Shown here piece after piece: positions 37,907 through 54,461 of a DNA stretch of 64,000 nt (its first letter is position 1; every line of letters begins with the position of its first letter). Made by a program: the position numbers and the translations under genes. Under the pieces are notes generated by a model that did not search any database, was not told the origin of the DNA, and was given only the letters and a program-made list of their open reading frames with translations. The stretch comes from a virus. The DNA lies in IMG/VR virus record IMGVR_UViG_3300020469_000020, positions 41,192 to 105,191 of that record; one strand, written 5' to 3'.

Positions 37907-37914
37907 AATAACCT

Positions 37915-38863: not shown

Positions 38864-39510
38864 TACAACTTTTCCTCTGCTAAAGATTTATATTGCCATT
38901 CATCTGTATGACCAACTTTCCATTTGGCTTCTGTTTCAACACTATAATTTTGACTACAAACTTTAAAGTCTGGTTGTTTTAGTTTTTCAGATGTCAAACT
39001 GCTGTCATGCCAAATGATTCTATTATTAGGTTGTGCGGCAAATTGACCATTATCTAATTGTAGAATGTTAAATGATTTGTGTTCTGGGTCATGTTCACTG
39101 AAATTTATATCAATTGTAGAGTGTTCACTATGACAATTATCTACAGTAAACATGTAAACACCTTTATACATTTTTCTATCTTTTGCAAAATATTCACATC
39201 TTGATAAAATAGGTTTTCTAATAATAGTTATACTATAATCAAAACAATCCCAAAGTTGTAGTGCATCTAATGGTAACTGATCTTCAAGGTCAATATCTGT
39301 TTTCCAAACAAATGCACTAATTGGTAGTTTATCAAACAATGCTCCATATTCTGTCAATAGAGTTTCAAAATACAAGGCTTTACCCTGCACACTTTTTAAA
39401 CTTATCCAAACACCTGGTGTATATTCTCCATAACCTTTTTCCAAATCATATAGATATTCTTTTTTAACATAAAGATTAGTTAAGGGTAAATTATGAACTA
39501 AGAACGCCAT
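38863..39510 (-). CDS. Conserved hypothetical protein of T4-like marine phages
   Basis: A 215-aa protein starting [20 protein letters not shown], with [33 protein letters not shown] and [15 protein letters not shown] recall this as one of the most conserved unknown proteins of T4-like cyanophages. No catalytic motif is evident. It overlaps the SbmA-like gene by 20 nt. Confidence 0.75.
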
Positions 39511-40483: not shown

Positions 40484-40514
40484 AATATTTCCTTATTATA
40501 ATATTTCATAAAAT

Positions 40515-40682
40515 TTAAAACTCAAATCTATTATCTAAATTAGCCAATGATTGTGCGTTACACTCTATAATCGGATAAACAATGTTTTCAAAATCAATAA
40601 GTGCTTTTTCATAAATTTGAGGATTCATGATTCCTACAGAGAGAATTACACCCGAAAAGAAACAAAATAATTTTGCTAACAT
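40515..40682 (-). CDS. 55-aa small membrane or exported protein
   Basis: MLAKLFCFFSGVILSVGI start (hydrophobic, residues 4-19), then IYEKALIDFENIVYPIIE. AGGAG lies 6 nt ahead of the ATG at 40682. It fills the gap between the SbmA-like gene and its upstream neighbour. Unknown function. Confidence 0.55.
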   Translation of the reverse strand: MLAKLFCFFSGVILSVGIMNPQIYEKALIDFENIVYPIIECNAQSLANLDNRFEF

Positions 40683-40696
40683 AAAAATCTCCTATT

Positions 40697-41329
40697 TCAA
40701 TTTTTAAAATAAAAACCTTTTCTTAGATAAGAAGGCGAACTAGTATATGTATAATCTATATATTCAATATTCTCCATACCTTCAAAAATAGGAATCATTT
40801 CAGACGTTTGATAATAGTCCATTTCTACCCAATTTGAATTTAACCTCAAATGAATTTCAATAATTTTGCCGTCAATCATCTCTATATTAGAGTATTTGTA
40901 TTTACCTTTCAAGTTTTTAAGAATGTTTGGAAATTTTACTTTATCAGTTGTTCTAACCCATTTATCCCATTTCCAAATGGGATTGTTTGTATTGCGAAAT
41001 CCTTCTACACATAGGATTTGTTCACCGTCTTCATAATCAATACTTAAATGTCTTCCTTTAAAAATTTCACACCAAAAATATCCTTCTGGTATTTCATCAT
41101 TCATAGATGGAGAAAGTTCTTTAAAAAAAGCACCTCTTCCCATTGACATTAAATTAACACAGGGTCTAATTATATAATTATTTTTTTGAGGAACTGAAAC
41201 TCCATGAGGACCACACACATAACCTAATCTTCTAGCAAGAATCAATTTATCAAATATCCATAAATCATCTAAGTGACATTTATTCCATGTCTCATCATCA
41301 TCTATATAATGTTCACTAATATTATACAT
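40697..41329 (-). CDS. Conserved phage protein, unknown (210 aa)
   Basis: Contains LWIFDKLILARRLGYVCGPHG (positions about 23-43), NNYIIRPCVNLMSMGRGA and GYFWCEIFKGRHLSIDYEDG. This layout is conserved in many phages of unrelated hosts as I recall; the RPCVN...GxGA segment is faintly ATP-grasp-like. No assigned function. Between rpiB and the small membrane gene in the rpiB-purT transcript. Confidence 0.65.
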   Translation of the reverse strand: MYNISEHYIDDDETWNKCHLDDLWIFDKLILARRLGYVCGPHGVSVPQKNNYIIRPCVNLMSMGRGAFFKELSPSMNDEIPEGYFWCEIFKGRHLSIDYEDGEQILCVEGFRNTNNPIWKWDKWVRTTDKVKFPNILKNLKGKYKYSNIEMIDGKIIEIHLRLNSNWVEMDYYQTSEMIPIFEGMENIEYIDYTYTSSPSYLRKGFYFKN

Positions 41330-41335
41330 ATATAC

Positions 41336-41824
41336 TTATACTAAAAGTTTATTCTCAGTTGGAAAATCATAATTCATTTCAATACTATAAGTAGAAAACT
41401 TTTTTATTCTTGCTTCATGCCTACCACCTTCAAATTCAGTATTTAAGAAAGCATCTACAATATCTGTTATAATATTAGGGTCAGTATTTCTTGCACCTAA
41501 ACATAAAACATTTGCATTGTTATGTTTTCTTGTCATAATAGCAGATTCAACATCTTTACATAATGCTGCACGTATAGCCCAAATTTTATTTGCCGCCATA
41601 CTCATTCCAATACCAGTACCACAAACTAAAATACCGTACTGACATTTACCTTCCATAATTTCAGAGCAAACTTTTTTTGAATAATCAGGATAGTCTACAG
41701 ATTCTGAACTATTGCATCCTAAATTAAGAACCATATCACCTAGCTTTAATGTATCAGCAAGGAAAGATGCTATCATATCTTTGACTATATACCCTGCATG
41801 ATCGCTTGCAATTGCTATTTCCAT
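41336..41824 (-). CDS. rpiB: Ribose-5-phosphate isomerase B (RpiB/LacAB family)
   Basis: A 162-aa isomerase of ribulose-5-P and ribose-5-P. SDHAG at residues 7-11 binds the substrate phosphate/ring region, and the active-site Cys lies in GILVCGTGIGMSMAANK (E. coli GILICGTGVGISIAANK). ALCKDVESAIMTRKHNNANV matches the family. Length is normal. It is first gene of the rpiB to purT run, with a candidate promoter 48-75 nt upstream. Confidence 0.95.
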   Translation of the reverse strand: MEIAIASDHAGYIVKDMIASFLADTLKLGDMVLNLGCNSSESVDYPDYSKKVCSEIMEGKCQYGILVCGTGIGMSMAANKIWAIRAALCKDVESAIMTRKHNNANVLCLGARNTDPNIITDIVDAFLNTEFEGGRHEARIKKFSTYSIEMNYDFPTENKLLV

Positions 41825-41871
41825 ATATTTTTATCTATAAAAATTTTAATAAATGTTTTGATTCATCCATA

Positions 41872-41899
41872 ACTATAAAAAGTACAACATTAATATCAA
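41872..41899 (-). promoter_or_regulatory. Candidate promoter for the rpiB-purT operon
   Basis: Minus-strand TTGATA (41894-41899), 16-bp spacer, TATAGT (41872-41877). Weaker than the other promoters here, but it lies in the 170-bp gap between the gp32 terminator and rpiB, where a promoter is needed. Nothing else in 41825-41995 is convincing. Confidence 0.4.
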
Positions 41900-41995
41900 T
41901 CATTAATTTGTCAATTATTTCTGGATAAGAATATGCGATAATGAGTATAGAATTTATTAAGTAAAATATGTAATCAGATGACATTAAACATTTTA

Positions 41996-42020
41996 GAAAA
42001 AGAGCGGATTAATCCGCTCT
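41996..42020 (-). terminator. Intrinsic terminator after gp32
   Basis: Perfect palindrome AGAGCGGATTAATCCGCTCT (42001-42020) followed on the minus strand by TTTTC. It separates gp32 from the rpiB operon and allows high, independent gp32 expression. Confidence 0.8.
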
Positions 42021-42029
42021 AGTTTTAGT

Positions 42030-42953
42030 TTATTCGCTTGCTAGTTTTTCAAAAAAGGCAAGTTCATCATCTTCGGCTGCAGGCGTTGTTACTCTATCAG
42101 ATTTAGCTACAAAGTCGGGAACAGACTTTCTAACTGGTTGTTCAACAGGTTCAGAAGAAGTTTCTGTTACTGTATGATCTACTTCAGTTTGAGAGTTATT
42201 AGGTTTACTACCAAACATTACAGACTGAAATCTTTTATTCAAATCATCATAAGACTTGTAATAATCACTTGCTGTAAATTCGCTTAACGAATATTGAGAA
42301 CGCCAAATTTTTTCCATTTCACCATCAGTTTCTGCCAACTGAGTTGGAGTATCAAATGAAGATTTATCATAAGTGATATAACCTTTTTCTCTTCTCATTC
42401 TCAATCGAAAATTACAACCTTCCAAAAAGTCAAACACATAAATTGGCTCTTCTGGTTTCATATCTGCAAATTCAGGTGCAGGAGGATTAATTTTCTCCTG
42501 AATAAATTCAAAGATTTTAGGACCGTATTGAAATAAAAATACTTTTCCTTCATTATCAGGATTTGTTGGATCTGAAATAACTAAAACATTAGAAACATAT
42601 TTCAATTTCTTTTTACGCAATCTTGCTAGAGTTTCGTTTTCAGTTCCACCTTCTGCCCACAATTGATTATTTGCTTCACAAATAGGACACTCTTTACCAA
42701 TACTTTTTGGACAATTATCAATTAACCAGCCATGAGGACCTTTAAATTCATGACGATGGTATTTTACATACTCTTCTTGTTCATCTGGACTTGGTGGCAA
42801 AAAACGAATGATAGCAGAACCTACACCATCTTTTGCTTCTAGTCTCCAAAATCTATTATCATCATAAGATGTATTTTTAGATTCTTTTTCCAACTTTTGT
42901 TGCATTGAAGCAAGTCTAGTTGTTCTAGATTTTAAAGCTGACTTGAAATCCAT
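42030..42953 (-). CDS. gp32: Single-stranded DNA-binding protein gp32
   Basis: A 307-aa T4-type SSB (T4 301 aa). N-terminal LAST-like basic motif, OB core with zinc site residues His (HGWLID context) and Cys in NCPKSIGKECPICEANN (about 79-95), and an acidic C-terminal tail DDELAFFEKLASE that recruits gp59 and other partners. An AAGGAG site, its own strong promoter and a terminator on both ends make it a separate unit. Confidence 0.95.
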   Translation of the reverse strand: MDFKSALKSRTTRLASMQQKLEKESKNTSYDDNRFWRLEAKDGVGSAIIRFLPPSPDEQEEYVKYHRHEFKGPHGWLIDNCPKSIGKECPICEANNQLWAEGGTENETLARLRKKKLKYVSNVLVISDPTNPDNEGKVFLFQYGPKIFEFIQEKINPPAPEFADMKPEEPIYVFDFLEGCNFRLRMRREKGYITYDKSSFDTPTQLAETDGEMEKIWRSQYSLSEFTASDYYKSYDDLNKRFQSVMFGSKPNNSQTEVDHTVTETSSEPVEQPVRKSVPDFVAKSDRVTTPAAEDDELAFFEKLASE

Positions 42954-43014
42954 AAATTATACTCTCCTTGAAAATGTTAATAAAAGCATTTTGATACAAA
43001 ATTCACTCTCAAAG

Positions 43015-43043
43015 ATCTTAACACACTTAAATAATTTTGTCAA
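43015..43043 (-). promoter_or_regulatory. Strong sigma70-like promoter for gp32
   Basis: -35 TTGACA (43038-43043), 17-bp spacer, -10 TAAGAT (43015-43020), with one GATC at the -10. The -35 overlaps the gp59 stop codon. Confidence 0.82.
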
Positions 43044-43684
43044 GTGCAAAAAATCTCTTTAACGATTTTTTTCAAACTTGTTGTCTCTTGCTCCTTTAAA
43101 AAGGTTTTCATTTTCTTCAGTCTTTGATTTATGATTGGAAAAAGAACATTTTCAGAAACTCTTGTTTCCATTATTTTTGAAAAATTTAAGACTTGATCCA
43201 AATATAAAACTGTTTGTGGTGATACTTGACTTTTTATTATAAACTTATAAATCATAGGAACTATATTTTCTTCAATTAAAAACATCGTGTTCATATTAGA
43301 TTTTTTTTTCTCTAGATATAATTTTATTTCATTTAACTCTTTTTCAAAAAAGTATTTTGGAGAATTTTGATAACTTGTCCAATATTTCCATGAAGAGACA
43401 TAATCTTCTGACATAAAGTATTCTATTTTTATTTTCGGATTATGGAATAAACCTGGAATAAAAAAATCTGGAAAGTCTTTTTTATCTTTTCCTTTTGCAA
43501 TAATACTATATGGTACAATATCATTAAAGTTGTGCTTTTTTATTTTTCCGTTATATTTCAAATAATTATAATTTTTAGAACTAAAATGTAATTTAATAGC
43601 TTGATATTTTTCTTTTACTTCCTCTGGTGTTACCAAAGATGTCTGGAAATTTCCTCGTTTTTGGTAAGAAGTTAAGTTGTTCAA
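43040..43684 (-). CDS. gp59: Helicase loader gp59
   Basis: T4 gp59 family protein loading gp41 helicase on gp32-coated DNA. EVKEKYQAIKLHFSSKNYNY with LKYNGKIK following is the conserved N-terminal HMG-like start, compare T4 VYKLYLMIKQHMNGKYDVIKYN. The C-terminal domain is helical with SQVSPQTVLYLDQVLNFS. No ATG is available: TTG at 43684 gives 214 aa but overlaps the upstream gene by 92 nt; a TTG at 43636 gives 198 aa and starts closer to the family consensus. Synteny 32-59-33 matches T4. Confidence 0.8.
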   Translation of the reverse strand: MNNLTSYQKRGNFQTSLVTPEEVKEKYQAIKLHFSSKNYNYLKYNGKIKKHNFNDIVPYSIIAKGKDKKDFPDFFIPGLFHNPKIKIEYFMSEDYVSSWKYWTSYQNSPKYFFEKELNEIKLYLEKKKSNMNTMFLIEENIVPMIYKFIIKSQVSPQTVLYLDQVLNFSKIMETRVSENVLFPIINQRLKKMKTFLKEQETTSLKKIVKEIFCT

Positions 43685-43853
43685 ATTCCTCTCTTATATC
43701 TGATTTAAGTTTTCCTGAAATAAAAGGAGCAACACTTTCATATTCAATACGTCTTTCATCACAAAATTGAATTATAGTTTCAATTAAACTTTGATTTGTT
43801 TTTTGTCTTAAAACATAAATTTTTTTTTGAAAACTTTCAACAGTTTCAAACAT
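43593..43853 (-). CDS. gp33: Late transcription co-activator gp33-like
   Basis: An 86-aa protein in the T4 gp33 position. The helical segment SLIETIIQFCDERRIEYESV then APFISGKLKSDIREEFEQLN resembles the gp33 proteins of marine T4-like phages as I recall them. In T4, gp33 bridges the sliding clamp and RNA polymerase to activate late promoters, which fits the many (T/G)ATAAATA boxes in this window. gp55 is not in the window. Confidence 0.6.
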   Translation of the reverse strand: MFETVESFQKKIYVLRQKTNQSLIETIIQFCDERRIEYESVAPFISGKLKSDIREEFEQLNFLPKTRKFPDIFGNTRGSKRKISSY

Positions 43854-44273
43854 TTAATTTTCCTTTTGAGTTACGTTATCTTGTACAGAATTTTCATAAT
43901 ACTCTATAATATTTTTTTGTTGTATGATATAACGTCTAATTTCGGCTACATTCAATGATAGTCTTTCATAATCTTTAACTTCTATAGCATAAAATACCCA
44001 CTCCTTTCCTTGTTCTTTGTTTATTTTTTCATTAAAAGCATCTATTGTATCCGGTGTTATTACATACCATGTAATATTTTTATTAAGTTTTAATCCCTTT
44101 GGCCTAGCTTGAATGGGAATATTCTTTTCAATAACTTTTGTTTTTATAATAACTTCTGGTTCTTTTTGAACAGAAGGTTGTTTGTTACTACAACTGTTTA
44201 ATAAAAAACTAATTGGTAGTATCAGTAGAAGTAATTTCTTCCAACTCTGCAAAAATTTTAGAGGTAGCTTCAT
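43854..44273 (-). CDS. o-spanin lipoprotein (Rz1-like)
   Basis: A 139-aa lipoprotein with signal and lipobox LLNSC (LLLLILPISFLLNSCSNKQ, Cys at about residue 28). The mature part has ITWYVITPDTIDAFNEKI and DYERLSLNVAEIRRYIIQQK, a block I recall next to spanin genes in marine T4-like phages. Its start lies 65 nt inside the i-spanin gene in another frame, the classic Rz/Rz1 overlap. The outer-membrane half of the spanin pair that fuses membranes at lysis. Confidence 0.75.
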   Translation of the reverse strand: MKLPLKFLQSWKKLLLLILPISFLLNSCSNKQPSVQKEPEVIIKTKVIEKNIPIQARPKGLKLNKNITWYVITPDTIDAFNEKINKEQGKEWVFYAIEVKDYERLSLNVAEIRRYIIQQKNIIEYYENSVQDNVTQKEN

Positions 44274-44610
44274 TTATACGTTTTTCAATAAGACCAGGTT
44301 TCTTTGAAGAAAGTTTTGTGAGATTATGATCATTCAATTTTTTCTGAAGGTCAATATTATAATTCTCTGCTTTCTGCAAAGACTTTTGAAGTTGTAATGT
44401 TTCTTTTTGTATTTTGGAATTTTGCTCACTTAAAACATTTACAGTAGTTTCTACATCTTTTAGACTGGATTTATACTTAGATGCTTCAGAAGTTTTAATT
44501 TCTAACTGATTTTTTAAATTTATGTAATGATTATATCCATAATATATACTTCCAGATACACTTAATAATAGTATTACTATTGTGTATAATTTGGTTAACA
44601 TATACTTCAA
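44209..44610 (-). CDS. i-spanin (Rz-like)
   Basis: A 133-aa protein with one N-terminal TM helix (LYTIVILLLSVSGSIYYGY, about residues 7-25) and a long periplasmic coiled coil (about 30-105), the plan of inner-membrane spanins. It overlaps the lipoprotein gene by 65 nt. A late box lies 33 nt upstream. No holin or endolysin gene was recognised adjacent. Confidence 0.75.
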   Translation of the reverse strand: MKYMLTKLYTIVILLLSVSGSIYYGYNHYINLKNQLEIKTSEASKYKSSLKDVETTVNVLSEQNSKIQKETLQLQKSLQKAENYNIDLQKKLNDHNLTKLSSKKPGLIEKRINEATSKIFAELEEITSTDTTN

Positions 44611-44642
44611 TCTTTAATTTGAAATGATTTATCTTAATATTA

Positions 44643-44650
44643 TATTTATC
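44643..44650 (-). promoter_or_regulatory. Late promoter box (GATAAATA) for the spanin pair
   Basis: Minus-strand GATAAATA, 33 nt ahead of the i-spanin ATG. Late timing suits lysis genes. Confidence 0.6.
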
Positions 44651-44865
44651 GTGTGCGGAATGTGGAAAAGAAAAAGAAAAGAAACTTAAACAAAAAACAA
44701 ACTTCAAAATACAAAAAACAGACAAGCACGGTGTTCAATATTCTCGGAGCAATGAACAAATTTTACTTTACCGAGGAGCAGTGAACAGTCAGGTTTAGAG
44801 TAGTTTTAAGGCCGCATTAGATGCGTGGAGTTTCTTAGTACATTCTCTTTTCCACTACGAACAAA
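44651..44865. other. Non-coding gap with repeated motif, possible small RNA or operator region
   Basis: No convincing gene in 215 bp. Minus strand carries two related blocks, TGTTCACTGCTCCTCGG (44771-44787) and TGTTCATTGCTCCGAG (44741-44757 region), about 30 bp apart, and a hairpin around CCGCATTAGATGCGTGG (44812-44828). Local G+C is higher than in the flanks. Could be a structured leader or terminator of the 192-aa gene transcript, a small RNA, or protein-binding sites. Confidence 0.35.
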
Positions 44866-45444
44866 TTAGATCAAGTCTTCCTCCTGGAGGACCTTTTCCT
44901 CTTTGTCCGATAAACGAATAGTTGTTGAAACATTTAGTTCCAATAACTTATCGGTTATTTTTTGACGATGTTTTTTACATGTACGAATTTCTTTACGATA
45001 TTCTTCTACCTCTTCTTTTGAAATAAGAACAGTAGATACCGACATTCCTCTCAAATAGCGAGGAGAATCTTCTCCCTGTTTTTCAAGTTTTTCCATTCGA
45101 TTAATAATTTCTTCCGCAGTATATCTACGAACAGATTTACTATCATCTACCAGTTCGGATAACCAGTTAACGATATTTGTGACTTCACGTTCTTCAGTTA
45201 ATAATTTGGAAATACCAATTTCCATATTTTTATGTGCAACTTTTTCTCTCATAGAAAAAAGAACACTATTTAACACACGAAGACGTATTAAATTATTTTT
45301 CCATAATTCGGTGTTCTCCTTCATTTCTTCTACTACACGGTCTTTATCATCAAAAGATGATTGTACGTTAAGGTTAATGTCACGGATTATACCGTTGATT
45401 TCACTTTGAAGTGCGGCCGCTTTTCTTAAATTAACTTCTGTCAT
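44866..45444 (-). CDS. Unknown coiled-coil protein (192 aa)
   Basis: A charged, almost entirely helical 192-aa protein (NLRKAAALQSEINGIIRDIN ... EEVEEYRKEIRTCKKHRQKI). AAGGAG lies 8 nt ahead of the ATG. It follows the tRNA-Leu gene by 22 nt and may share its promoter. No family recognised. Confidence 0.65.
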   Translation of the reverse strand: MTEVNLRKAAALQSEINGIIRDINLNVQSSFDDKDRVVEEMKENTELWKNNLIRLRVLNSVLFSMREKVAHKNMEIGISKLLTEEREVTNIVNWLSELVDDSKSVRRYTAEEIINRMEKLEKQGEDSPRYLRGMSVSTVLISKEEVEEYRKEIRTCKKHRQKITDKLLELNVSTTIRLSDKEEKVLQEEDLI

Positions 45445-45466
45445 AATATACTCCTTAATTGCAAAT

Positions 45467-45553
45467 TGGTGCGGCAGGTCGGACTTGAACCGACAAGACT
45501 ATTAAGTCGACGGATTTTAAGTCCGTTGTGTTTACCATTTTCACCACAGCCGC
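45467..45553 (-). tRNA. tRNA-Leu (anticodon UAA)
   Basis: 87 nt including encoded CCA. The anticodon arm ACGGA-CTTAAAA-TCCGT gives UAA in the 7-nt loop, read as UUA leucine. There is a long class II variable arm (GACTTAATAGTC region) and a T arm GTCGG-TTCAAGT-CCGAC. Acceptor GCGGCTG/CTGCCGC has one U-U mismatch at the sixth pair. UUA is frequent in these AT-rich genes, so the tRNA suits phage codon use. Confidence 0.93.
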
Positions 45554-45578
45554 TTTTTTATAATTTTACTATGAGATC

Positions 45579-45607
45579 AGTATAACACAACTGTTTTAAA
45601 ATGTCAA
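45579..45607 (-). promoter_or_regulatory. Sigma70-like promoter for tRNA-Leu
   Basis: -35 TTGACA (45602-45607), 17-bp spacer, -10 TATACT (45579-45584), one GATC just after. RNA would begin about 20 nt ahead of the tRNA. Confidence 0.82.
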
Positions 45608-45816
45608 GGTTTTTTTATTAATTCTTTCAAACCAAAAATATCATATCCATAATATAAAGTTACATATAACAACATAAAAACGATTGTGTTTACTAAACCG
45701 CCCCAAAATAATAATATAATTAGAACTTTGCGTATAATAGGTTTAACATAAATTGTGCATGGTAATTTATATATGCAGGAATCAATAAAATTATATATGC
45801 GGTTCTTGATTGCCAT
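45604..45816 (-). CDS. Small membrane protein (70 aa)
   Basis: The ATG at 45816 has GGAGAAGATC directly upstream. Predicted TM helix VLIILLFWGGLVNTIVFML (about residues 31-49) and a second hydrophobic stretch VTLYYGYDIFGL. Overlaps the upstream 58-aa gene by 26 nt, so they are a coupled membrane pair. Its end overlaps the tRNA promoter -35. Confidence 0.6.
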   Translation of the reverse strand: MAIKNRIYNFIDSCIYKLPCTIYVKPIIRKVLIILLFWGGLVNTIVFMLLYVTLYYGYDIFGLKELIKKP

Positions 45817-45967
45817 GATCTTCTCCAATTGGAATATTTTGACGATGACACCAGTAATCATGTAAATGTCTTCTTCTCATCGGCCATAATACAAAGAAAG
45901 TTAATACTAGACAAATACCTAAACCTACTACTAAAAATAATAAGCCTCCAAATACTATATCAAACAT
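45791..45967 (-). CDS. Small single-TM protein (58 aa)
   Basis: MFDIVFGGLLFLVVGLGI, then LVLTFFVLW forms one long TM segment (about residues 5-29), then basic RRRHLHDYWCHRQ. An AAGG site 6 nt ahead of the ATG at 45967. Unknown role. Confidence 0.6.
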   Translation of the reverse strand: MFDIVFGGLLFLVVGLGICLVLTFFVLWPMRRRHLHDYWCHRQNIPIGEDHGNQEPHI

Positions 45968-45980
45968 ATCTAACCTTATT

Positions 45981-46529
45981 TTACATCATAAAATTATTTA
46001 ATTGCAAAACTTTATCTATATGAATTGGTTTGTAATCTGTCCATTCAACACATACACAACGATGATGTTTAGTTGGACTAAAATTTTGATGAATATGTCC
46101 ATGTACATTTATATGCGATCTATAAATTCCATCTTTTGAATAACTTCTTAAACCACTTATATCAATAGGAACATGAGTAAGTAATAAGTTATGCTCACGT
46201 AGTAAACGTAACATCATGACTTCTTTAAATAATTCGTTTTTAACAATCCATTTAATATTATCATGATTACCAACAATAAGTTTTTTCTTGCCGTTTAATG
46301 TTTTGAATTTGTCTGCAAAAGCAGAATTATTATTCCATGTAAGATCTCCAAGATGATATACTTCATCTTTTGGTTTTATAGTCTCATTCCAATTATCAAA
46401 CATGCAATTGTCCATTTCTTCGGCAGAAGAAAATTTATTTCCACGTATTAGATTACCATTAAAATCAATAAAGTTCAAGATATTTCTGTGACCAAAATGA
46501 GTGTCACTAATTAACCATATATCATTCAT
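45981..46529 (-). CDS. Calcineurin-like metallophosphoesterase
   Basis: A 182-aa enzyme from the ATG at 46529 (8-nt overlap with the methyltransferase gene). All metal motifs are present: SDTHFGH (residues about 7-13), YHLGDLTWN, VGNHD, LTHVPID and VHGHIHQN. These hold the two-metal site of the family. The substrate could be nucleotides, cyclic nucleotides or protein phosphate. Adjacent to the RM pair on one transcript. Confidence 0.88.
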   Translation of the reverse strand: MNDIWLISDTHFGHRNILNFIDFNGNLIRGNKFSSAEEMDNCMFDNWNETIKPKDEVYHLGDLTWNNNSAFADKFKTLNGKKKLIVGNHDNIKWIVKNELFKEVMMLRLLREHNLLLTHVPIDISGLRSYSKDGIYRSHINVHGHIHQNFSPTKHHRCVCVEWTDYKPIHIDKVLQLNNFMM

Positions 46530-47589
46530 AATAATAATCTCTAGTTGATGGACCTTTTTCAAAAATGCGAGTTAAATCAGAGTTTTTCTTTTTATGAGTT
46601 TTATCATTAGATTGTCTTTTAGGAGAAGTCAAACCAATATCATAAGTATGCTCCCATTCTTGTTTTTTATGATAATCATATACATCTGAAATTAATTTCA
46701 TTTTCCCTATATCATGCACATTCCAGGCAGAAGAGCCATATTCATATAGTCTATCTAAACAATTTTGAATAACAGGAAATAACCATTTATCACGCCAATC
46801 TTCATATGTAGTAAACATATTTTCTGATTGCTTTTCAGAATCAGAATAAATTTCTAAATTAAAATATGGAGGTGAAGTTAAAACTAGATGTACTTTTTCA
46901 AAATCATAGTTGGGTATATTTTCAGCACCATCACAATATAATTGATATCTGCTTTTGTCAATATTTAAAAAAGAAAGCATCCTATTTAAATTTTCAAAAG
47001 TTTCTTCATTTGGCTCAAATCCAATATATTTTTGATTTTTTGCTAATGTACCGAGCAATCTTCCACCCCAACCACAACAAGGATCTAAAACAACAGGATT
47101 ACTTATTGTAAGATTTTGACGGAAACAAATTGATTTTGCTAGGTGTGGCCTGTACATAGTGTTTTTCGTCAAGCCACAACAGAAATAGATACCTCTCCGA
47201 AGTTCTGAGAGATACGGAGTTGAATGACTCTTACGATTCCATTTCAGAACTTTGACAAGATTTTCTTTAGTCCAACTATTTTCAAAACTAACACCCTTAT
47301 TATTTTTAATTTTAAAATAATTTGGAAAGAAATGTTCACATAATTTCATACCAACACGTACAGTTGAAGAACTGTGCTTACCTATACCTATTGCGGTGCC
47401 ATTATGTCGGTAACTAGAAACATCATATTCACATAATTTTAGCCAGTCTTTATGTAAATTTTGGTTATCATAACTATGTTTATAATCTATATGATATAAT
47501 TCTTCTGCTAAATTTTCTACAATATCTTCAAACTGTTGATCTGATAACTGTCTAAGTGAATTTTTTTTATTCAAAAATTGTAAAATCAT
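46522..47589 (-). CDS. DNA methyltransferase, SPPY type
   Basis: A 355-aa putative modification methylase. Motif I (SAM binding) VLDPCCGWGGRLLGTLA and motif IV LVLTSPPYFNLE are clear. TSPPY is typical of N4-cytosine and some N6-adenine enzymes, and motif I before motif IV indicates the gamma/beta-like order to be tested. The N-terminal 160 residues with PYLSELRRGIYFCCGLTKNT may recognise the target. It overlaps the nuclease-like gene by 23 nt. Confidence 0.82.
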   Translation of the reverse strand: MILQFLNKKNSLRQLSDQQFEDIVENLAEELYHIDYKHSYDNQNLHKDWLKLCEYDVSSYRHNGTAIGIGKHSSSTVRVGMKLCEHFFPNYFKIKNNKGVSFENSWTKENLVKVLKWNRKSHSTPYLSELRRGIYFCCGLTKNTMYRPHLAKSICFRQNLTISNPVVLDPCCGWGGRLLGTLAKNQKYIGFEPNEETFENLNRMLSFLNIDKSRYQLYCDGAENIPNYDFEKVHLVLTSPPYFNLEIYSDSEKQSENMFTTYEDWRDKWLFPVIQNCLDRLYEYGSSAWNVHDIGKMKLISDVYDYHKKQEWEHTYDIGLTSPKRQSNDKTHKKKNSDLTRIFEKGPSTRDYYYE

Positions 47590-48124
47590 AATAAAGATTC
47601 TTTTCTAAAAATTCTTGATAATCCAAATCAAACCATAATTGGTCTGACATTTTTTTCTGAATTCTGGCTTTATTTTTTCTTAAATTACCGCTCCAACCAG
47701 ATGTGGTCCTTTTCCAATCATATTCTTTAAAATTGGGTTTTTTAAAAATATGAAGACGATATTTATTTTCATTAATTTGAACAAGTGACCAAATTTCATC
47801 TTCATGATTTTCTGAAATATAATTTAGTTTTTCTGTTAGAGTTTCATATTTTGTAGTTCTGTGAGAAGAAATGGTAAGTTTGGGAGTTCTCTTACCCTCA
47901 ATACTTCCGCCTTTACAAGATATTTTTAAGTTTTCACATACAATATCAACACCTTGACTATGACTTCCCGCATTCCAAGTTGAATTTAAATCACATGCCA
48001 AAAAAGATTTGTGCAGAATATTTTCCCATGCTTGAGAATCTATTTTAAATTGATATCCACTGTGATGCCAGTGTATCCATTTTTGAATTTCAGAAAGCAA
48101 TTTCTCAGAAATATTAATAGACAT
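47567..48124 (-). CDS. Putative type II restriction endonuclease
   Basis: A 185-aa protein from ATG 48124, with AAAGGAG 7 nt upstream. SHSQGVDIVCENLKISCKGG (about residues 55-74) fits a PD-(D/E)xK nuclease core, with Asp in GVDI and SCK as the xK element. SSHRTTKYETLTEKLNYI follows. It lies directly upstream of and overlaps a DNA methyltransferase gene, the standard layout of a compact type II RM system. Specificity unknown. It may restrict competing phage or host DNA. Confidence 0.65.
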   Translation of the reverse strand: MSINISEKLLSEIQKWIHWHHSGYQFKIDSQAWENILHKSFLACDLNSTWNAGSHSQGVDIVCENLKISCKGGSIEGKRTPKLTISSHRTTKYETLTEKLNYISENHEDEIWSLVQINENKYRLHIFKKPNFKEYDWKRTTSGWSGNLRKNKARIQKKMSDQLWFDLDYQEFLEKNLYYDFTIFE

Positions 48125-48129
48125 AGAGG

Positions 48130-48176
48130 AATCTCCTTTGCTATTTGTATTTCGAATTAGTATAGCAAAGGAGATT
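48130..48176. repeat. Perfect 15-bp inverted repeat over the RM promoter
   Basis: AATCTCCTTTGCTAT (48130-48144) and ATAGCAAAGGAGATT (48162-48176), 17 bp apart. One arm covers the ribosome site of the nuclease gene, the other covers most of the -10 and spacer. It looks like an operator or a self-pairing control element. Confidence 0.85.
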
Positions 48177-48187
48177 GAAAATGTCAA
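48159..48187 (-). promoter_or_regulatory. Sigma70-like promoter of the RM operon
   Basis: -35 TTGACA (48182-48187), 17-bp spacer, -10 TATACT (48159-48164) in a GCTATACT context. Embedded in the inverted repeat 48130-48176. Confidence 0.82.
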
Positions 48188-48199
48188 GTAAAAAATCTA

Positions 48200-49192
48200 T
48201 TATTTATTAAATTTTTTCACATAATCTGTAACTACTTTGTATTTTCTGACTACCTCATCCATAGACTCTCCGTCTCTAAATGACTGTTTATCAAGTTGTT
48301 TTTGAGAATCTCCGTTCGGCCATATTCTCCAACTATCATTATCTATAACGTCAGACACTAATATTTCATTAGTTTGCTTACACTTACCCATTTCTATTTT
48401 GAGATCAACTAACTCTACATCAAACTCTTCCCAAGATTTTTCTAACAACATAAATGTATCAAACATTAATTTTATCATTATTTGATATTCATAAGGTGTA
48501 ATCAAACTATCTATTGTACAAAGTTTATTTTTATGTGTGGGTTCTTCTTTAGCAGAATATAAATCCATTTTAAATCCTGTTTTATCATTTTCATTTCCAT
48601 TTTTTTCTCTCCAATCACCCCAATTAAAAATAGCATATGGGTCGGTATAAACAGGTAAAATCCACTCACCATCTTTCATATATTTTTTTCTTGCAGTATC
48701 TTCTGGAACTAATCCCCAATCAAAATCTTTATCTTCTTCATCTGAGTGTAAAAAGTGATCATATTTTACATAAGAATACTTATGAAAAAATTCATATAAT
48801 GGTTTTCCTTTTACTCCTCTATCACTAAGTCCAAATTTAAATCCTTTTTTTATTTGTGGATTTCTTTTCAAATAACTTCCAAATGCTGTTCTTCTTATTA
48901 CACATTCATATGGAATCATATCACAATTACGTGCAATAAAACTTGAATTATCTAATTGTCTAACAAATGAATTTGCTATATTATTTTTAGTTAATAATTT
49001 AAATATTTCACAATTTTGTATAGTTTTTTCTTCTGCTACTTCTACTTCTGTTTTTTTCGCAGCATCATAAGCAGTTAACACATTTTTAGTAGAAATTTTC
49101 AACAGATTTTTAAACTCATCACTATGCTCTTCGTAGCGAACATTTGTAAATGGTGTAAGTATTTTAGTTTTTCCCTCTATTGTTTCCGACAT
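48200..49192 (-). CDS. purC: SAICAR synthetase (PurC)
   Basis: A 330-aa enzyme joining CAIR and aspartate, purine step 8. It starts with IEGKTKILTPF (compare family EGKTKxxY), contains STKNVLTAYDAAKK (ATP site DxxTA-like), SFIARNCDMIPYECVIRRTA (about 107-126) with the R-R-A block and a C-terminal VDLKIEMGK and SDVIDNDSWRIWP, the catalytic (V/S)D(E)(I/V)xxDSxR region. It is longer than bacterial PurC (about 240), owing to insertions. Last gene of the pur operon. Confidence 0.94.
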   Translation of the reverse strand: MSETIEGKTKILTPFTNVRYEEHSDEFKNLLKISTKNVLTAYDAAKKTEVEVAEEKTIQNCEIFKLLTKNNIANSFVRQLDNSSFIARNCDMIPYECVIRRTAFGSYLKRNPQIKKGFKFGLSDRGVKGKPLYEFFHKYSYVKYDHFLHSDEEDKDFDWGLVPEDTARKKYMKDGEWILPVYTDPYAIFNWGDWREKNGNENDKTGFKMDLYSAKEEPTHKNKLCTIDSLITPYEYQIMIKLMFDTFMLLEKSWEEFDVELVDLKIEMGKCKQTNEILVSDVIDNDSWRIWPNGDSQKQLDKQSFRDGESMDEVVRKYKVVTDYVKKFNK

Positions 49193-49196
49193 ATTG

Positions 49197-49817
49197 CTAA
49201 TCTCTTTTAAAAAAGCTTCTACCCATTACTAGGTAATCTGCTCCGTTTTTTATTGCTTCTTCTGGTGTGGATACTCTAATTTGATCTTGTTTATCATCAA
49301 TATCATATCTTATTCCAGGACAAATTTTTTTAAGTTCATGCGAATCCAATATATCTTCTTTAAGAAGTAACAAATCTTTTGGTGAGCATATCATTCCCCA
49401 AAATCCATTATCCTTCATTAACATTGTGGATCTTTTGTAAAGATTGTATGCACTCTTATTATAAACAGTCCGAGTGTCATCATAGTCCCAACTTGTTAGA
49501 AATGTTACACCTAGTAATTTAATTTTGTCTGCATATTTTTTTAACGATTCAATTGCTTTTAAATTATTATTCATATGAACTGTTACCATATCGGCACCAG
49601 TATCTATCAAATGTTCAACTACACTACACATTGTATTTGGTATATCATATAATTTGTAATCACAGAATATAGTTCTATGATTAGTTTTTGTATATGGATA
49701 TAAAATATGATTTAATTTAAATGCATATACTTTATATTTCCACTCTTGAATTATTTTATCAGCCTCTTCTACAGTATAATTATCTAAAGCGACTATAGTT
49801 TTTGAATTAATATTCAT
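49197..49817 (-). CDS. pyrF: Orotidine 5'-phosphate decarboxylase (PyrF)
   Basis: A 206-aa TIM-barrel decarboxylase making UMP. The catalytic tetrad sequence FCDYKLYDIPNT (about residues 50-61; D-K-D) is intact, preceded by FKLNHILYPY and followed by TVHMNNN. The phosphate-binding CPGIRYD and MGRSFF blocks are present. It starts 4 nt inside the stop of the aminotransferase gene. It is the only de novo pyrimidine enzyme recognised here. Confidence 0.93.
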   Translation of the reverse strand: MNINSKTIVALDNYTVEEADKIIQEWKYKVYAFKLNHILYPYTKTNHRTIFCDYKLYDIPNTMCSVVEHLIDTGADMVTVHMNNNLKAIESLKKYADKIKLLGVTFLTSWDYDDTRTVYNKSAYNLYKRSTMLMKDNGFWGMICSPKDLLLLKEDILDSHELKKICPGIRYDIDDKQDQIRVSTPEEAIKNGADYLVMGRSFFKRD

Positions 49818-51085
49818 TTTTTACCGATATAATATTGAACACTTGTCAAATAAACACAATTTATAAATACATCCATTGCTTTTTCAAGTTCTTTTATTTG
49901 TGGAAATGTAGGAGATATTCTAATATTTTTATTTTCTGGATCTATTCCATATGGAAATGTTGAACCTGCTGGTGTTAATTTAACTCCGGCTTCTGCAGAT
50001 AATTCTACAACTTTTTTTGCAAGTCCTGGAATAGTATCAAAAGAAATAAAATAACCTCCGACAGGTTTAGTCCAAGTTCCGATGCCGTAATTATTTAAAC
50101 CATAATATAGTTTTTTCAAAACAGTTTCAAACTTGTAACGAATAATTGATGCATGTTCTTTCATTTGATTCCTTACTGATACGATATTAGGAAACATTTT
50201 AGAATGTCTCAATTGATTTACCTTATTAGGACATATTCTGAACACTGTTAAATGATCAAGCATGGTTTGTATATTATTTTTAGAAGCACCTAAAAAGCTT
50301 ATACCACTTCCAGCATGTGTTACTTTACTTGTAGAACCAAAAAGAAAAACATTATCTTCTGTATTATATGACTTACAGAATTTCATAATACTTGCTAATT
50401 CTTTTTTATCAAAATGGTCATGAACGGCATATGCATTATCCCATATAACAAAGAAATCATCACCTGTTATCGTTCCTAGTTTAGCAATTCTATTTACAGT
50501 TTTTTCATCATAAACAGTACCTGTTGGATTTGAATATTTTGGAACTGTAAAGATTCCTTTTACATTTTTTTCCTTTACTAATTTCTCTACTAAATCCATA
50601 TCAGGACCAGATTCCAGTAGAGGAACATTTATCATAGGAATACCAAGTTTTTCAGCAATACCAAAATGTCTATCATAACCAGGAACTACAGCAATAAAAA
50701 CAGGATCTTCTTGTTGTAGCCAAGGTTTATTTTCACCGTATCCATAATGTGCTCCTACATGCATGACCTGATACATTAATGTTAATGAACTATTATCACT
50801 AGCAATTACTTCATCTATCTCTAAATCCAACCAATCTGCTCCTAGTCTTCTCGCTTCTAATATACCTTCTTGATTACCATAATTTCTTGTATCTATACCA
50901 GTTTCAGAAATATAATTTCCTCCTAATATTCCATCTATATGGTCAGACAAATTTAACTGATTTACAGATGGTTTACCTCTTGTTAGGTCTAATTTCAATC
51001 CGCTATTTTTAAATTCATTATGTCTTGTTAAAAACTTTTCTTCCAATTCAGATAAGAATTCTTTATCATGATCTTTAATCATCAT
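49814..51085 (-). CDS. PLP-dependent aspartate-type aminotransferase
   Basis: A 423-aa fold-type I aminotransferase of the family with signature LTRGKPSVNQLNLS near the start. PLP Lys lies in FGSTSKVTHAGSGISFLG (about 248-265), preceded by VPKYSNPTGTVY and WDNAYAVHD. It resembles the bacterial aspartate aminotransferase class related to MocR-type enzymes. Making aspartate from oxaloacetate would feed PurC and PurA, which both consume aspartate; that link is inferred from operon membership. Confidence 0.9.
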   Translation of the reverse strand: MMIKDHDKEFLSELEEKFLTRHNEFKNSGLKLDLTRGKPSVNQLNLSDHIDGILGGNYISETGIDTRNYGNQEGILEARRLGADWLDLEIDEVIASDNSSLTLMYQVMHVGAHYGYGENKPWLQQEDPVFIAVVPGYDRHFGIAEKLGIPMINVPLLESGPDMDLVEKLVKEKNVKGIFTVPKYSNPTGTVYDEKTVNRIAKLGTITGDDFFVIWDNAYAVHDHFDKKELASIMKFCKSYNTEDNVFLFGSTSKVTHAGSGISFLGASKNNIQTMLDHLTVFRICPNKVNQLRHSKMFPNIVSVRNQMKEHASIIRYKFETVLKKLYYGLNNYGIGTWTKPVGGYFISFDTIPGLAKKVVELSAEAGVKLTPAGSTFPYGIDPENKNIRISPTFPQIKELEKAMDVFINCVYLTSVQYYIGKK

Positions 51086-51369
51086 ACTAATTCACTCCAT
51101 ATTTTAAGTTTATCTTTTTTAACTTTTACTCTGGCATTTAATTCTTCCCAATCTGTAATATTATGTTCTACCATTAAATTTATCATACATAAAACATCAC
51201 CAACTTCCTCTATTAATTTTATTCTTTGTTCTTCTTCTATTTGATCTATTTTTTCATATTTGCGAATTATTTTACTACATCTTTGTGTAAGTTCTCCGCA
51301 TTCTTCAGCGGTAATAATCATTAATTGTTGAAGAGTATTGATAGGATTTTTTTGCAAATTATTTCTCAA
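51082..51369 (-). CDS. MazG-like NTP pyrophosphohydrolase
   Basis: A 95-aa all-alpha protein with the two Mg-binding acidic helices: ITAEECGELTQRCSKI (about residues 19-34) and KLIEEVGDVLCMINLM (about 55-70), the ExxE...ExxD pattern. Such proteins hydrolyse (d)NTPs or alarmones. MazG-type genes are common in marine phages and are thought to tune nucleotide or ppGpp pools. ATGA overlap on both sides. Confidence 0.85.
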   Translation of the reverse strand: MRNNLQKNPINTLQQLMIITAEECGELTQRCSKIIRKYEKIDQIEEEQRIKLIEEVGDVLCMINLMVEHNITDWEELNARVKVKKDKLKIWSELV

Positions 51370-51722
51370 TTAAATGTTTCATCTTTTTTAGGACCAGTCA
51401 TAAAAAACATTTTTCTTTTAGAAGCTTCCAATAACATATGTTGTTTATAAACTCTTTTACTTTGTATGTCTTTTATTAATTCAAATCCATCATTAGGATT
51501 ATCATACCACGTAGAGTGATATGAACACTTACCATCATTTCCACGTTTCCATCTCAAGTGAAGTATTCCAATAATATCTCCTGTTTCTGGATTTTTAAAT
51601 CCTTGCATAATATCTGTCATTCCAAGAGAAGGTAAAAACTTATATTTAATATCTGATTTTATCATTAAGCGATATTGTTCTTCACAAACTTTTCTAAACT
51701 CCTGTTTTTCTTCCTCACTCAT
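51366..51722 (-). CDS. Unknown 118-aa protein in the pur operon
   Basis: Not recognised. It contains LGMTDIMQGFKNPETGDIIG and HLRWKRGNDGKCSYHSTWYD, beta-rich with several aromatics. Starts and ends in 4-nt overlaps with purB and the MazG-like gene, so it is a true operon member. Confidence 0.6.
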   Translation of the reverse strand: MSEEEKQEFRKVCEEQYRLMIKSDIKYKFLPSLGMTDIMQGFKNPETGDIIGILHLRWKRGNDGKCSYHSTWYDNPNDGFELIKDIQSKRVYKQHMLLEASKRKMFFMTGPKKDETFN

Positions 51723-53008
51723 TTTTTAAAAACTTTATCGTAGATATAATCTATATTTTTTATATATCTTTTGGGATTAAATATTAAATCAATTTCATCT
51801 AAGCTGAGTATTCCTCTATCTTTAAAAGATATTTTAAAATAATCTTCATTATGTGCAGCCTCTTGAACCACTTTATATGCTTCTTCTCTTGTGTAATTTT
51901 TTTCCTTAATCAAATATAATAACACTTGTTGGGAATAAACTAAACCATTTGAACTATTTAAATTTTCAAACATGCGTTTTTCGTTAACAACCATATTATC
52001 TACAACACTTTTAGTTCTATTCAGTGCAAAAGCTAAGTGAACAAAAGTATCTGGTAATATAATTCTTTCTGCACTAGAATGACTAATATCTCTTTCATGC
52101 CATAAGGCAACATTTTCAAGGGCAGGAACAATTGCCATTCTTATTACTCTACACAATCCAGTTAAATTTTCAGTTAATATTGGATTCTTTTTATGAGGCA
52201 TAGCACTAGAACCTTTTTGTCCAGCAGTAAAAGATTCTATTACTTCATTAACTTCTGTTCTTTGTAAATGTCTAATTTCTACTGCAAATCTTTCAATACA
52301 ACTTGCTGTTATGGATAGATGAGATATTAATAACGCAATTCTATCTCTTGGTATTACTTGTGTAGAAATATCTTCAGGATATATTTGAATTTTATTTGCA
52401 AGAGTTTCTTCAACAACTGGGTCAATCATAGAAAAAGTTCCTACAGCGCCACTACACTTTATTCTCAACATGTTATCAATATTATCGCTCAATAACTTTT
52501 CACATCTATCAAATGCTGTATAATGACTTAAAAGCTTTAATCCAAATGTCATTGGTTCGGCATGTATTCCATGTGAACGTCCAACACAATATGTATTCTT
52601 GTGTTTTAAAGCTTGCTTTTTTAAAGATTCTTTTAGTTCTTTTAATTTTTCTATTATTATTTTTAGAGAACTTCTTATCTGAATTGCAAGACCTGTATCA
52701 ATTAGATCTTGACTTGTCATACCGTAATGAACATATTTACTAGGTTCACCTAGTATTTTTGCTAGATGAGTTAAAAAAGCAATTATATCATGCTTAGTTA
52801 CTGATTCTATTTCAGAGATTTTTTCAACAAATCCTTCGTGTAAACACTCATCTTTTTTCAGATGCATATATTTGCTTACAGAAGACGGTATATGTCCTAG
52901 ATTACCGTTTATTTCACAAACGGCATTTTCAATATCAAACCAAATTTTAAATTTATTTTCTTCACTCCATATCTCAGCAACTTCTTTATCTGTATATCTT
53001 TCATGCAT
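51719..53008 (-). CDS. purB: Adenylosuccinate lyase (PurB)
   Basis: A 429-aa fumarase/aspartase superfamily enzyme catalysing two purine steps: SAICAR to AICAR, and adenylosuccinate to AMP. Signature GQKGSSAMPHKKNPILTENL (about residues 265-284) holds the catalytic Ser loop; GRSHGIHAEPMTFG holds the catalytic His; HYGMTSQDLIDTG binds substrate. Full length. It has partners on both sides of its reactions in the window (PurC and PurA). Confidence 0.97.
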   Translation of the reverse strand: MHERYTDKEVAEIWSEENKFKIWFDIENAVCEINGNLGHIPSSVSKYMHLKKDECLHEGFVEKISEIESVTKHDIIAFLTHLAKILGEPSKYVHYGMTSQDLIDTGLAIQIRSSLKIIIEKLKELKESLKKQALKHKNTYCVGRSHGIHAEPMTFGLKLLSHYTAFDRCEKLLSDNIDNMLRIKCSGAVGTFSMIDPVVEETLANKIQIYPEDISTQVIPRDRIALLISHLSITASCIERFAVEIRHLQRTEVNEVIESFTAGQKGSSAMPHKKNPILTENLTGLCRVIRMAIVPALENVALWHERDISHSSAERIILPDTFVHLAFALNRTKSVVDNMVVNEKRMFENLNSSNGLVYSQQVLLYLIKEKNYTREEAYKVVQEAAHNEDYFKISFKDRGILSLDEIDLIFNPKRYIKNIDYIYDKVFKK

Positions 53009-53009
53009 A

Positions 53010-54446
53010 TTACACCATTTTCATTATTCTTTTTTTACCATTTTCAGTAGGATAATTACCATCAATACATGCTAAACATAATTCTTTTTCTGTCTTAATA
53101 TTAATACTATCTAAAAGTCCAGTATAAGAAAGATATTTAAGACTGTCAGCATCAAAATCATTATGACTAGGTAATGACTTTCCTGCATATAACTCCTGTA
53201 TTGTAGGAAAATCTATACCATAAAAACATGGTGAAACTATGGGAGGTGAACCTATTCTCAAATGTATTTCTTTTACTTCACACCATTCCCTTAAAATTTT
53301 AACAAGTTCATATAAAGTAGAACCTCTAACAATACTATCATCAACAAGTATTATTTTTTTATCTTTTAGTATTTCTTTTATAAAACTAAATTTTTGACGA
53401 ACACGGGTCTTTCTATCATCACTGGAAATAAATGTTCTGCCTATTTGATGATTTTTTATAATACCCAACACATAAGGAAGTTTCATAGCATTTGCATACT
53501 TATTTCCTGCTACATAAGAAGTATCAGGAACAGGCACTACGATCCAATCATCTCCTTTAAAATCACCTGTTTCTTCTCTTGCTAAATTTTCACCAATTCT
53601 TGTTCTTGTATTATACATATTTATTTCATCCATAACACTGGCGTTATGAGCAAAATAAATGTACTCAAAAAAACAATGATTTATTTTAATTGGTTTAGCA
53701 TATTCTTTTAAATAAAATTCCTTATCATTTGCTATAAGAACATTTCCAGGTGGAATATCATATGATTCTATTTGCAAATTAGATAAGACACAACTTTCAC
53801 TCGCTACAACTAATAAATCATCTTTAAATCCATAACATAATGGATGAAAGCCATCTACATCTCTACTCGCAAAAAAGTTTCCTTCTGCATTTACAAATGA
53901 TAAATTCCAAGCACCATCAAAAACAGTGTTTAATGACTTTAATATTTCTATAAAATCTAAATCTTCTTTTGGACTATTCTTTTGAATATAGCGACTAATA
54001 TAATGCATTATAATTTCAGTGTCACTATCATAGGTCATATTATAACCTATTTTTTCTAAGTCATTCTTTAGTTGATCAAAGTTACTAAGATTACCATTAT
54101 ATGCAATACTAAACCATTTGTTTAATCTTCCATGAGGTCTTTCAAATGGTTGCGCTAACGTATCAGAATCATCACCACTTGTGGCGTATCTTGAATGACC
54201 AATGCCTATATTTCCTGAATAATTTTCTTTAATTTTATCTAACTTATATCTATGATTTACTCTGAATACTTCATCTACTTTTCCGTTTTCTTTATAGGTC
54301 TGAAGTATTCTTTTTCTGTTTTTATTATAAGTTGTGATACCAGCACTAAGTTGTCCTCTATGCTGTAAGTCCATTAAAGATTTTATTAAGTCAGAAACAA
54401 CATTATAATCTTTGTTATACGAATAAAATCCTACAATTCCACACAA
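53010..54446 (-). CDS. purF: Amidophosphoribosyltransferase (PurF), Fe-S type
   Basis: A 478-aa enzyme converting PRPP and glutamine to phosphoribosylamine, the committed purine step. MCGIVGFYSY puts the Ntn nucleophile Cys directly after Met with no propeptide. PRPP loop KKIILVDDSIVRGSTLYE (about 349-366). All four Cys that bind the 4Fe-4S cluster in B. subtilis PurF have counterparts: HCFFEYIYFA, SPCFYGID, and CLAC in LCLACIDGNYP. Confidence 0.97.
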   Translation of the reverse strand: MCGIVGFYSYNKDYNVVSDLIKSLMDLQHRGQLSAGITTYNKNRKRILQTYKENGKVDEVFRVNHRYKLDKIKENYSGNIGIGHSRYATSGDDSDTLAQPFERPHGRLNKWFSIAYNGNLSNFDQLKNDLEKIGYNMTYDSDTEIIMHYISRYIQKNSPKEDLDFIEILKSLNTVFDGAWNLSFVNAEGNFFASRDVDGFHPLCYGFKDDLLVVASESCVLSNLQIESYDIPPGNVLIANDKEFYLKEYAKPIKINHCFFEYIYFAHNASVMDEINMYNTRTRIGENLAREETGDFKGDDWIVVPVPDTSYVAGNKYANAMKLPYVLGIIKNHQIGRTFISSDDRKTRVRQKFSFIKEILKDKKIILVDDSIVRGSTLYELVKILREWCEVKEIHLRIGSPPIVSPCFYGIDFPTIQELYAGKSLPSHNDFDADSLKYLSYTGLLDSINIKTEKELCLACIDGNYPTENGKKRIMKMV

Positions 54447-54461
54447 TATTATTCTCTATAA

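What the first reader, a model, noticed from the sequence alone, without database searches (positions are those of the whole stretch)
46522..48187. Phage-encoded restriction-modification pair with a 15-bp perfect inverted repeat on its promoter
A GVDI...SCK nuclease candidate and an SPPY methylase overlap by 23 nt. The promoter (TTGACA-17-TATACT) is embedded in a perfect 15-bp inverted repeat whose arms also cover the ribosome site. Compact RM systems need tight control; no separate C protein gene is next to them, so the methylase, the nuclease, or RNA pairing may act on the repeat.
Basis: partly seen in the sequence, partly recalled or inferred. Interest (0 to 1): 0.7.

Follow-up and report, generated by a model that had tools for sequence, protein, structure and literature searches.

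The report
Phage restriction-modification pair with hairpin-masked start
An uncultured virus of bacteria appears to carry its own DNA-cutting enzyme and the matching DNA-protecting enzyme, and the cutter's start signal sits in a mirror repeat that should hide it in long messages but expose it in messages started from its own promoter.

Summary
ORFs 46522-47589 (methyltransferase, M) and 47567-48124 (185 aa, R), both on the minus strand, overlap by 23 nt. A perfect 15-bp inverted repeat (48130-48144 / 48162-48176) spans the promoter spacer and the ribosome site and is the longest close-set perfect repeat in the window.

The pair is very probably a Type II restriction-modification system. R matches nothing in Pfam, PHROGs, NCBIfam or the PDB by sequence. 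Its AlphaFold model (pLDDT 90) has PD-(D/E)XK-like topology, and all confident Foldseek matches are restriction enzymes, though none reaches E 0.001. R homologues lie beside DNA methyltransferases in 29 of 33 loci, from four divergent groups. M homologues sit beside R or two other nuclease-like families. R keeps an invariant E, D and K; the usual second acid is Ser or Gln.

Most likely role of the repeat: in read-through RNA the 5' arm masks R's Shine-Dalgarno; RNA from the own promoter starts inside the loop and lacks that arm, as in T4 gene e and I-TevI. Predicted opening cost falls from 20 to 7 kcal/mol. The hairpin is not conserved in most relatives; an own sigma70-type promoter is common. 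No activity was tested.

The parts
46522..47589 (-). M: DNA amino-methyltransferase, 355 aa, motif I DPCCGWGGR then motif IV TSPPY
   Evidence: Pfam N6_N4_Mtase and N6_Mtase above cut-off; 56 viral homologues at 43-60% identity; model pLDDT 86.5 matching methyltransferases
47567..48124 (-). R: candidate Type II restriction endonuclease, 185 aa, PD-(D/E)XK-like with D...SCK
   Evidence: 27-member alignment with invariant E, H, D, K; model pLDDT 89.9; Foldseek matches NhoI, Eco15I, EcoRV, 3ndh; methyltransferase neighbours
47567..47589 (-). 23-nt overlap of the end of R and the start of M
   Evidence: ORF coordinates; most relatives with an R homologue beside the same kind of M overlap by 8-11 nt, a few do not overlap
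48182..48187 (-). -35 box TTGACA of the R promoter
48159..48164 (-). -10 box TATACT (extended, TG before it) of the R promoter
48162..48176 (-). 5' arm of the inverted repeat (AATCTCCTTTGCTAT), in the promoter spacer and the first half of the -10; absent from RNA started at this promoter
48130..48144 (-). 3' arm of the inverted repeat (ATAGCAAAGGAGATT), covering the Shine-Dalgarno
48133..48138 (-). Shine-Dalgarno AAGGAG of R, 8 nt before the ATG
   Evidence: sequence
48200..49192 (-). Upstream purC-like gene (SAICAR synthetase), same direction, ends 12 nt before the -35; assumed source of read-through RNA
   Evidence: no terminator-like site on this strand in the scan

Best explanation
46522-48187 is a compact Type II restriction-modification module of an uncultured tailed phage: a small PD-(D/E)XK-type endonuclease (R) followed by an amino-methyltransferase (M) in overlapping frames. 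M would mark the phage genome and R would cut unmarked DNA (competing phages, possibly the host chromosome). R has its own sigma70-type promoter, placed so that the 5' arm of a 15-bp inverted repeat lies upstream of the RNA start. RNA reading through from the upstream purine operon carries both arms and folds into a stem that buries R's Shine-Dalgarno, so R is not made from it. RNA from the own promoter lacks the 5' arm and its Shine-Dalgarno is held only by a weak local stem, so R is made. Shown by computation: the anatomy, the homology links, the predicted fold and the energy difference. Inferred: enzyme activities, shared specificity, read-through, the RNA switch and the biological role. 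My estimates: restriction-modification pair 0.9; RNA masking as the main role of the repeat 0.5.
For: R model pLDDT 89.9 and restriction-enzyme matches; invariant E, D, K; R homologues beside methyltransferases of four groups in 29 of 33 locus rows; M homologues beside three families of upstream genes, two of them matching PADLOC REase_II models, and 5 of 27 R-family members matching another REase_II model, best 1.1e-5. Repeat: unique in the window, RNA z -6.2, SD opening cost 20.3 kcal/mol in read-through RNA against 6.7 from the own start, no shuffle of 100 as high. Same layout known in T4 genes e, soc, 49 and I-TevI (PMC3014915).
Against: Foldseek E-values are 4.5e-3 or worse and TM-scores 0.34-0.54. 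The R sequence itself matches no family or solved structure. The second acid of the motif is replaced by Ser or Gln. The hairpin is not conserved: only L007 of 26 homologous loci shows significant masking. The SD is not free in the own-promoter RNA (4-bp stem). RBS-occluding hairpins before pvuIIR had no effect when disrupted (PMC2997769), though they were predicted at only -4.6 kcal/mol. Masking R may also lower M if M is translationally coupled, which would not give M before R.
Confidence: 0.55

Rival explanations
1. The restriction-modification pair is real, but the inverted repeat is a DNA operator: a dimeric protein (M, R, or a phage or host repressor) binds the two arms, 32 bp apart centre to centre, and controls the promoter, as M.SsoII and M.Ecl18kI regulate their own systems.
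For: The 5' arm lies between -35 and -10, an ideal repressor position; no C gene is adjacent; methyltransferases are known to act as regulators in C-less systems (PMC3978073, PMC3695355, listed).
Against: The arm has no further copies in the record beyond chance and is not shared by relatives of R or M. The 3' arm coincides with the Shine-Dalgarno, which RNA masking explains and an operator does not need. M has no recognised DNA-binding regulatory domain; the N-terminal part is kept in relatives whatever their partner.
Confidence: 0.25
2. The repeat mainly shapes the fate of the upstream operon's RNA (an RNase processing site, 3'-end stabiliser or weak attenuator after purC), with any effect on R secondary.
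For: The repeat begins just downstream of the purC stop codon and makes a 15-bp stem.
Against: No U-tract follows, and no terminator was called on this strand. It does not explain why the arm matches the Shine-Dalgarno exactly or why the promoter sits between the arms.
Confidence: 0.12
3. R is not an active restriction enzyme: a degenerate or repurposed nuclease-fold protein, with M acting alone as a self-protecting orphan methyltransferase.
For: The usual second acid of the motif is Ser or Gln across the family. Sister phages L001 and L008 carry M without R. R itself has no database match.
Against: E, D and K are invariant across a very divergent set, which points to a retained active site. 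From general knowledge, SxK in place of (D/E)xK occurs in active enzymes of the NgoMIV/Cfr10I group, though with other spacing. R has a strong promoter and Shine-Dalgarno and a consistent methyltransferase neighbour.
Confidence: 0.1

Closest known systems
Type II restriction-modification systems with EcoRV-, NhoI/Eco15I- or ThaI-like endonucleases
   Same: Small nuclease-fold protein next to an amino-methyltransferase; best structural matches of the R model
   Different: No detectable sequence similarity of R to solved structures; Ser/Gln in place of the second acidic residue; carried by a phage
T4 gene e, soc, 49 and I-TevI early-RNA hairpins (PMC3014915)
   Same: Promoter inside the 5' arm of a stem that buries the Shine-Dalgarno; RNA started there lacks that arm
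   Different: sigma70-type promoter here, not a T4 late promoter; target is a restriction enzyme gene; effect not tested
RBS-occluding hairpins before R genes of C-controlled systems, e.g. PvuII (PMC2997769)
   Same: Predicted stem hides the ribosome site of the endonuclease gene; overlap of neighbouring frames
   Different: Those stems are weak (-4.6 kcal/mol for PvuII), lie inside the C gene, and had no effect when disrupted; here there is no C gene, the stem is much stronger and the promoter lies in it
M.SsoII / M.Ecl18kI autoregulated systems (PMC3978073, PMC3695355)
   Same: Inverted repeat in the control region of a system without a C gene
   Different: Cytosine-5 enzymes with a regulatory N-terminus; here an amino-methyltransferase and no operator copies conserved in relatives
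Restriction-modification systems of marseilleviruses and chloroviruses (PMC7253447)
   Same: Complete pair carried by a virus; the R gene product had no recognisable domain by standard tools
   Different: Viruses of eukaryotes with a GATC enzyme; unrelated control region

Membership tests
Type II restriction-modification system | Adjacent DNA methyltransferase with intact catalytic motifs | tested here: met
   Pfam cut-offs passed; motifs I and IV invariant among 19 homologues
Type II restriction-modification system | Adjacent gene encodes a nuclease-fold protein that goes with methyltransferases across genomes | tested here: met
   Model and Foldseek, of modest E-value; 29 of 33 locus rows beside a methyltransferase
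Type II restriction-modification system | R cuts, and M protects, the same DNA site | not testable with these tools
   No activity or specificity data; needs purified proteins or a methylome
PD-(D/E)XK nuclease superfamily | Alpha-beta-beta-beta-alpha-beta core with helix Glu, strand Asp and strand (D/E)xK | tested here: inconclusive
   Topology and invariant E, D, K fit, but the (D/E) of the last motif is Ser, Gln or rarely Gly, and no match reached E 0.001
C-protein-controlled restriction-modification system | Small helix-turn-helix C gene beside R | tested here: not met
   Neighbours are a phosphoesterase and purC; no C-like ORF between them
T4 gene e type translational hairpin | Stem buries the Shine-Dalgarno in read-through RNA | tested here: met
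   Predicted: SD unpaired probability 0.0, opening cost 20.3 kcal/mol
T4 gene e type translational hairpin | Promoter located so that its RNA lacks the 5' arm | tested here: met
   5' arm at -52 to -38, -10 box ends at -35 relative to the ATG; the start point is predicted, not mapped
T4 gene e type translational hairpin | Lowered translation of the long RNA in vivo | not testable with these tools
   Needs reporter fusions
T4 gene e type translational hairpin | Structure kept in related phages | tested here: not met
   Only L007 of 26 homologous R loci shows significant masking; shorter SD-covering repeats with p of 0.05 or less in L004, L007, L068, L081

The most novel reading that the evidence does not exclude
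A virus-borne restriction enzyme of an undescribed family that exchanges methyltransferase partners, whose synthesis is timed by a promoter-embedded RNA hairpin instead of a controller protein: silent in long phage transcripts, on only from its own promoter.
Probability: 0.4. Interest if true: 0.65.

Novelty: new variant of a known kind. Interest (0 to 1): 0.5.

Why it matters
Restriction-modification pairs need the protecting enzyme before the cutter. Known solutions are controller proteins, methyltransferase autoregulation and promoter arrangement; RNA masking of the endonuclease gene was proposed for PvuII-type systems but failed its test there. This locus offers a far stronger version that one set of reporter plasmids could test. 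It also exposes a small endonuclease family without a curated family or solved relative, absent from the cultured-phage and plasmid collections for the members queried, that exchanges methyltransferase partners: a source of possibly new specificities and evidence that phages in nature carry complete restriction systems.

Tried and rejected
Sequence searches of R against Pfam, PHROGs, NCBIfam, PADLOC, PDB, cultured phages, plasmids and exact-peptide viral scans gave nothing; the link came only through neighbours of M relatives. Profile searches of the PDB gave only chance matches. Queries with other R members against phages and plasmids found nothing. A controller gene was looked for and not found. 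A genome-wide operator reading of the arm was tested and not supported. The TTG start at 48187 was rejected, since it lies in the promoter. Conservation of the hairpin across the family was tested and not found; L068 shares the repeat layout, but its RNA stem is too weak to mask. A genus-wide search from L090 failed on its handle and was not repeated.

Full report
WHAT IS THERE. The window lies in a 105,191-base virus record. On the minus strand, M (46522-47589, 355 aa) and R (47567-48124, 185 aa from ATG) overlap by 23 nt. A consensus-like promoter, TTGACA-17-TATACT with an extended -10, scores 11 of 12 and is the best of 42 hits in 5 kb. A perfect 15-bp inverted repeat with a 17-nt loop has one arm in the promoter spacer, running into the -10, and the other over the Shine-Dalgarno AAGGAG. 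It is the longest perfect repeat of its kind in 64 kb, with none of 15 bp in ten shuffles, and the extreme outlier among 107 ORF starts, 15 bp against a next best of 9.

M. Pfam N6_N4_Mtase and N6_Mtase pass their cut-offs. 56 viral loci carry a homologue, at 43-60% identity. Motif I precedes motif IV, and the core of both is invariant in 19 aligned members. The model (pLDDT 86.5) matches methyltransferases. Base and site specificity are unknown.

R. By itself R matches nothing in Pfam, PHROGs, NCBIfam, PADLOC, the PDB, cultured phages or plasmids. Reading the gene upstream of M in the viral loci gave the lead: several hold a homologue of R, mostly overlapping M by 8-11 nt. A profile from these found 32 viral loci (some on contigs already seen) and one bacterial single-cell contig. 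In 27 aligned homologues E35, H56, D61, K72, R90, T92, T96, K100, W138, I156, S161, Q163 and W165 are invariant (the numbering includes one residue before the ATG, so subtract 1 for the protein). The order helix-Glu, Asp, x-x-Lys is that of PD-(D/E)XK nucleases, but the acidic residue two before Lys is Ser, Gln or rarely Gly. The model (pLDDT 89.9, pTM 0.84) shows two helices, strands carrying Asp and Lys, a helix, then strands. All listed Foldseek matches with probability above 0.5 are restriction enzymes (NhoI, Eco15I, EcoRV, 3ndh), though E-values are only 4.5e-3 and worse and TM-scores 0.34-0.54. That 3ndh is ThaI is from general knowledge. Five of 27 members match a PADLOC Type II restriction-enzyme model, best 1.1e-5.

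PARTNER EXCHANGE. The upstream neighbours of M homologues cluster into three families of 22, 17 and 11 members, the last including R, with few exceptions. Four tested members of the first match PADLOC REase_II, down to 1.8e-12, and one member of the second does so at 3.1e-5. Conversely R homologues lie beside one of four methyltransferase groups in 29 of 33 locus rows; some rows are near-identical contigs. Groups ii-iv are distantly related to each other, and group i (this M) only marginally to them. In L001 and L008, which share neighbouring genes with the window, M lies upstream of the same phosphoesterase without R, so R comes and goes. This two-way linkage is the strongest evidence for a restriction-modification pair.

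THE REPEAT. In read-through RNA the SD is fully paired (unpaired probability 0.0); in RNA from the expected start (about 48152) it is held only by a 4-bp stem. Opening the SD region costs 20.3 against 6.7 kcal/mol. No shuffle of the upstream part reached the read-through value: p 0.01, the minimum possible with 100 shuffles. The upstream purC-like gene runs in the same direction, ends 12 nt before the -35, and no terminator-like site was reported on that strand. This is the layout described for T4 genes e, soc, 49 and I-TevI, where the 5' strand of the stem is removed by starting transcription inside it; for gene e the effect is 100-fold (PMC3014915). Read-through and repression are not shown here.

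HOW GENERAL. Own promoters of at least 10 of 12 consensus matches lie within 80 nt of 14 of 27 R-family genes but of 0 of 20 genes from the other two partner families (the loci are not fully independent). In L015, L063 and L065 the -10 ends only 4-8 nt before the ATG, hinting at leaderless messages. Strong RNA masking, by contrast, is seen only in the window and, more weakly, in L007. L068, with a different methyltransferase, repeats the layout (TTGACA-17-TATACT, 9-bp arms TAATTCCTT/AAGGAATTA), but its stem is too weak to mask. So the promoter is a frequent family feature and the long hairpin is local.

RIVALS. A DNA operator is possible, since M.SsoII and M.Ecl18kI regulate their own genes (abstracts), but the arm has no further copies in the record beyond chance and is not shared by relatives. 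RNA processing and a degenerate R are less likely. Earlier work on PvuII found RBS-occluding hairpins before R genes and no effect on disrupting them (PMC2997769), which lowers my confidence in the switch, although the PvuII stem is far weaker (-4.6 kcal/mol).

ROLE. By analogy with marseilleviruses, whose enzyme cuts other viruses' DNA but not the host genome (PMC7253447), exclusion of competitors is the likeliest role. Host DNA breakdown is possible, since here host DNA shares a compartment with the enzyme. Both are inference.

VERDICT. Restriction-modification pair: 0.9. RNA masking as the main role of the repeat: 0.5. A new variant of a known kind; interest 0.5.

Noticed in passing
35509-55388 (minus strand): The phage carries many nucleotide and pentose genes: PurT-like, PurA, ribulose-phosphate epimerase, RpiB, PurC, PyrF, aspartate aminotransferase, PurB, PurF-like and PRPP synthetase, an unusually full purine set.
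   Followed up: partly
11779, 15582 (+) and 35467 (-), ORF starts: Three predicted proteins begin MKSFxxF(L/I)xE, resembling the T4 capsid-targeting sequence as I recall it; they may be packaged internal proteins.
   Followed up: no
L001 and L008, around 5000-6000: Related phages carry the methyltransferase near the same phosphoesterase gene but without R, so R is gained or lost independently of M.
   Followed up: partly
L015, L063, L065, upstream of the R homologue: The -10 box ends 4-8 nt before the start codon, which suggests leaderless endonuclease messages.
   Followed up: no
L055 3684-4681 and L056 4983-5980: The methyltransferase homologue is split into two overlapping-frame ORFs (171 and 154 aa), apparently a frameshift beside an intact R homologue; could be an assembly error.
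   Followed up: no
L081-L083, 3186-6077: Gene order M then R, with an 8-bp repeat whose 3' arm ends just before the R start codon, and a second methyltransferase frame lacking its 5' part downstream.
   Followed up: no
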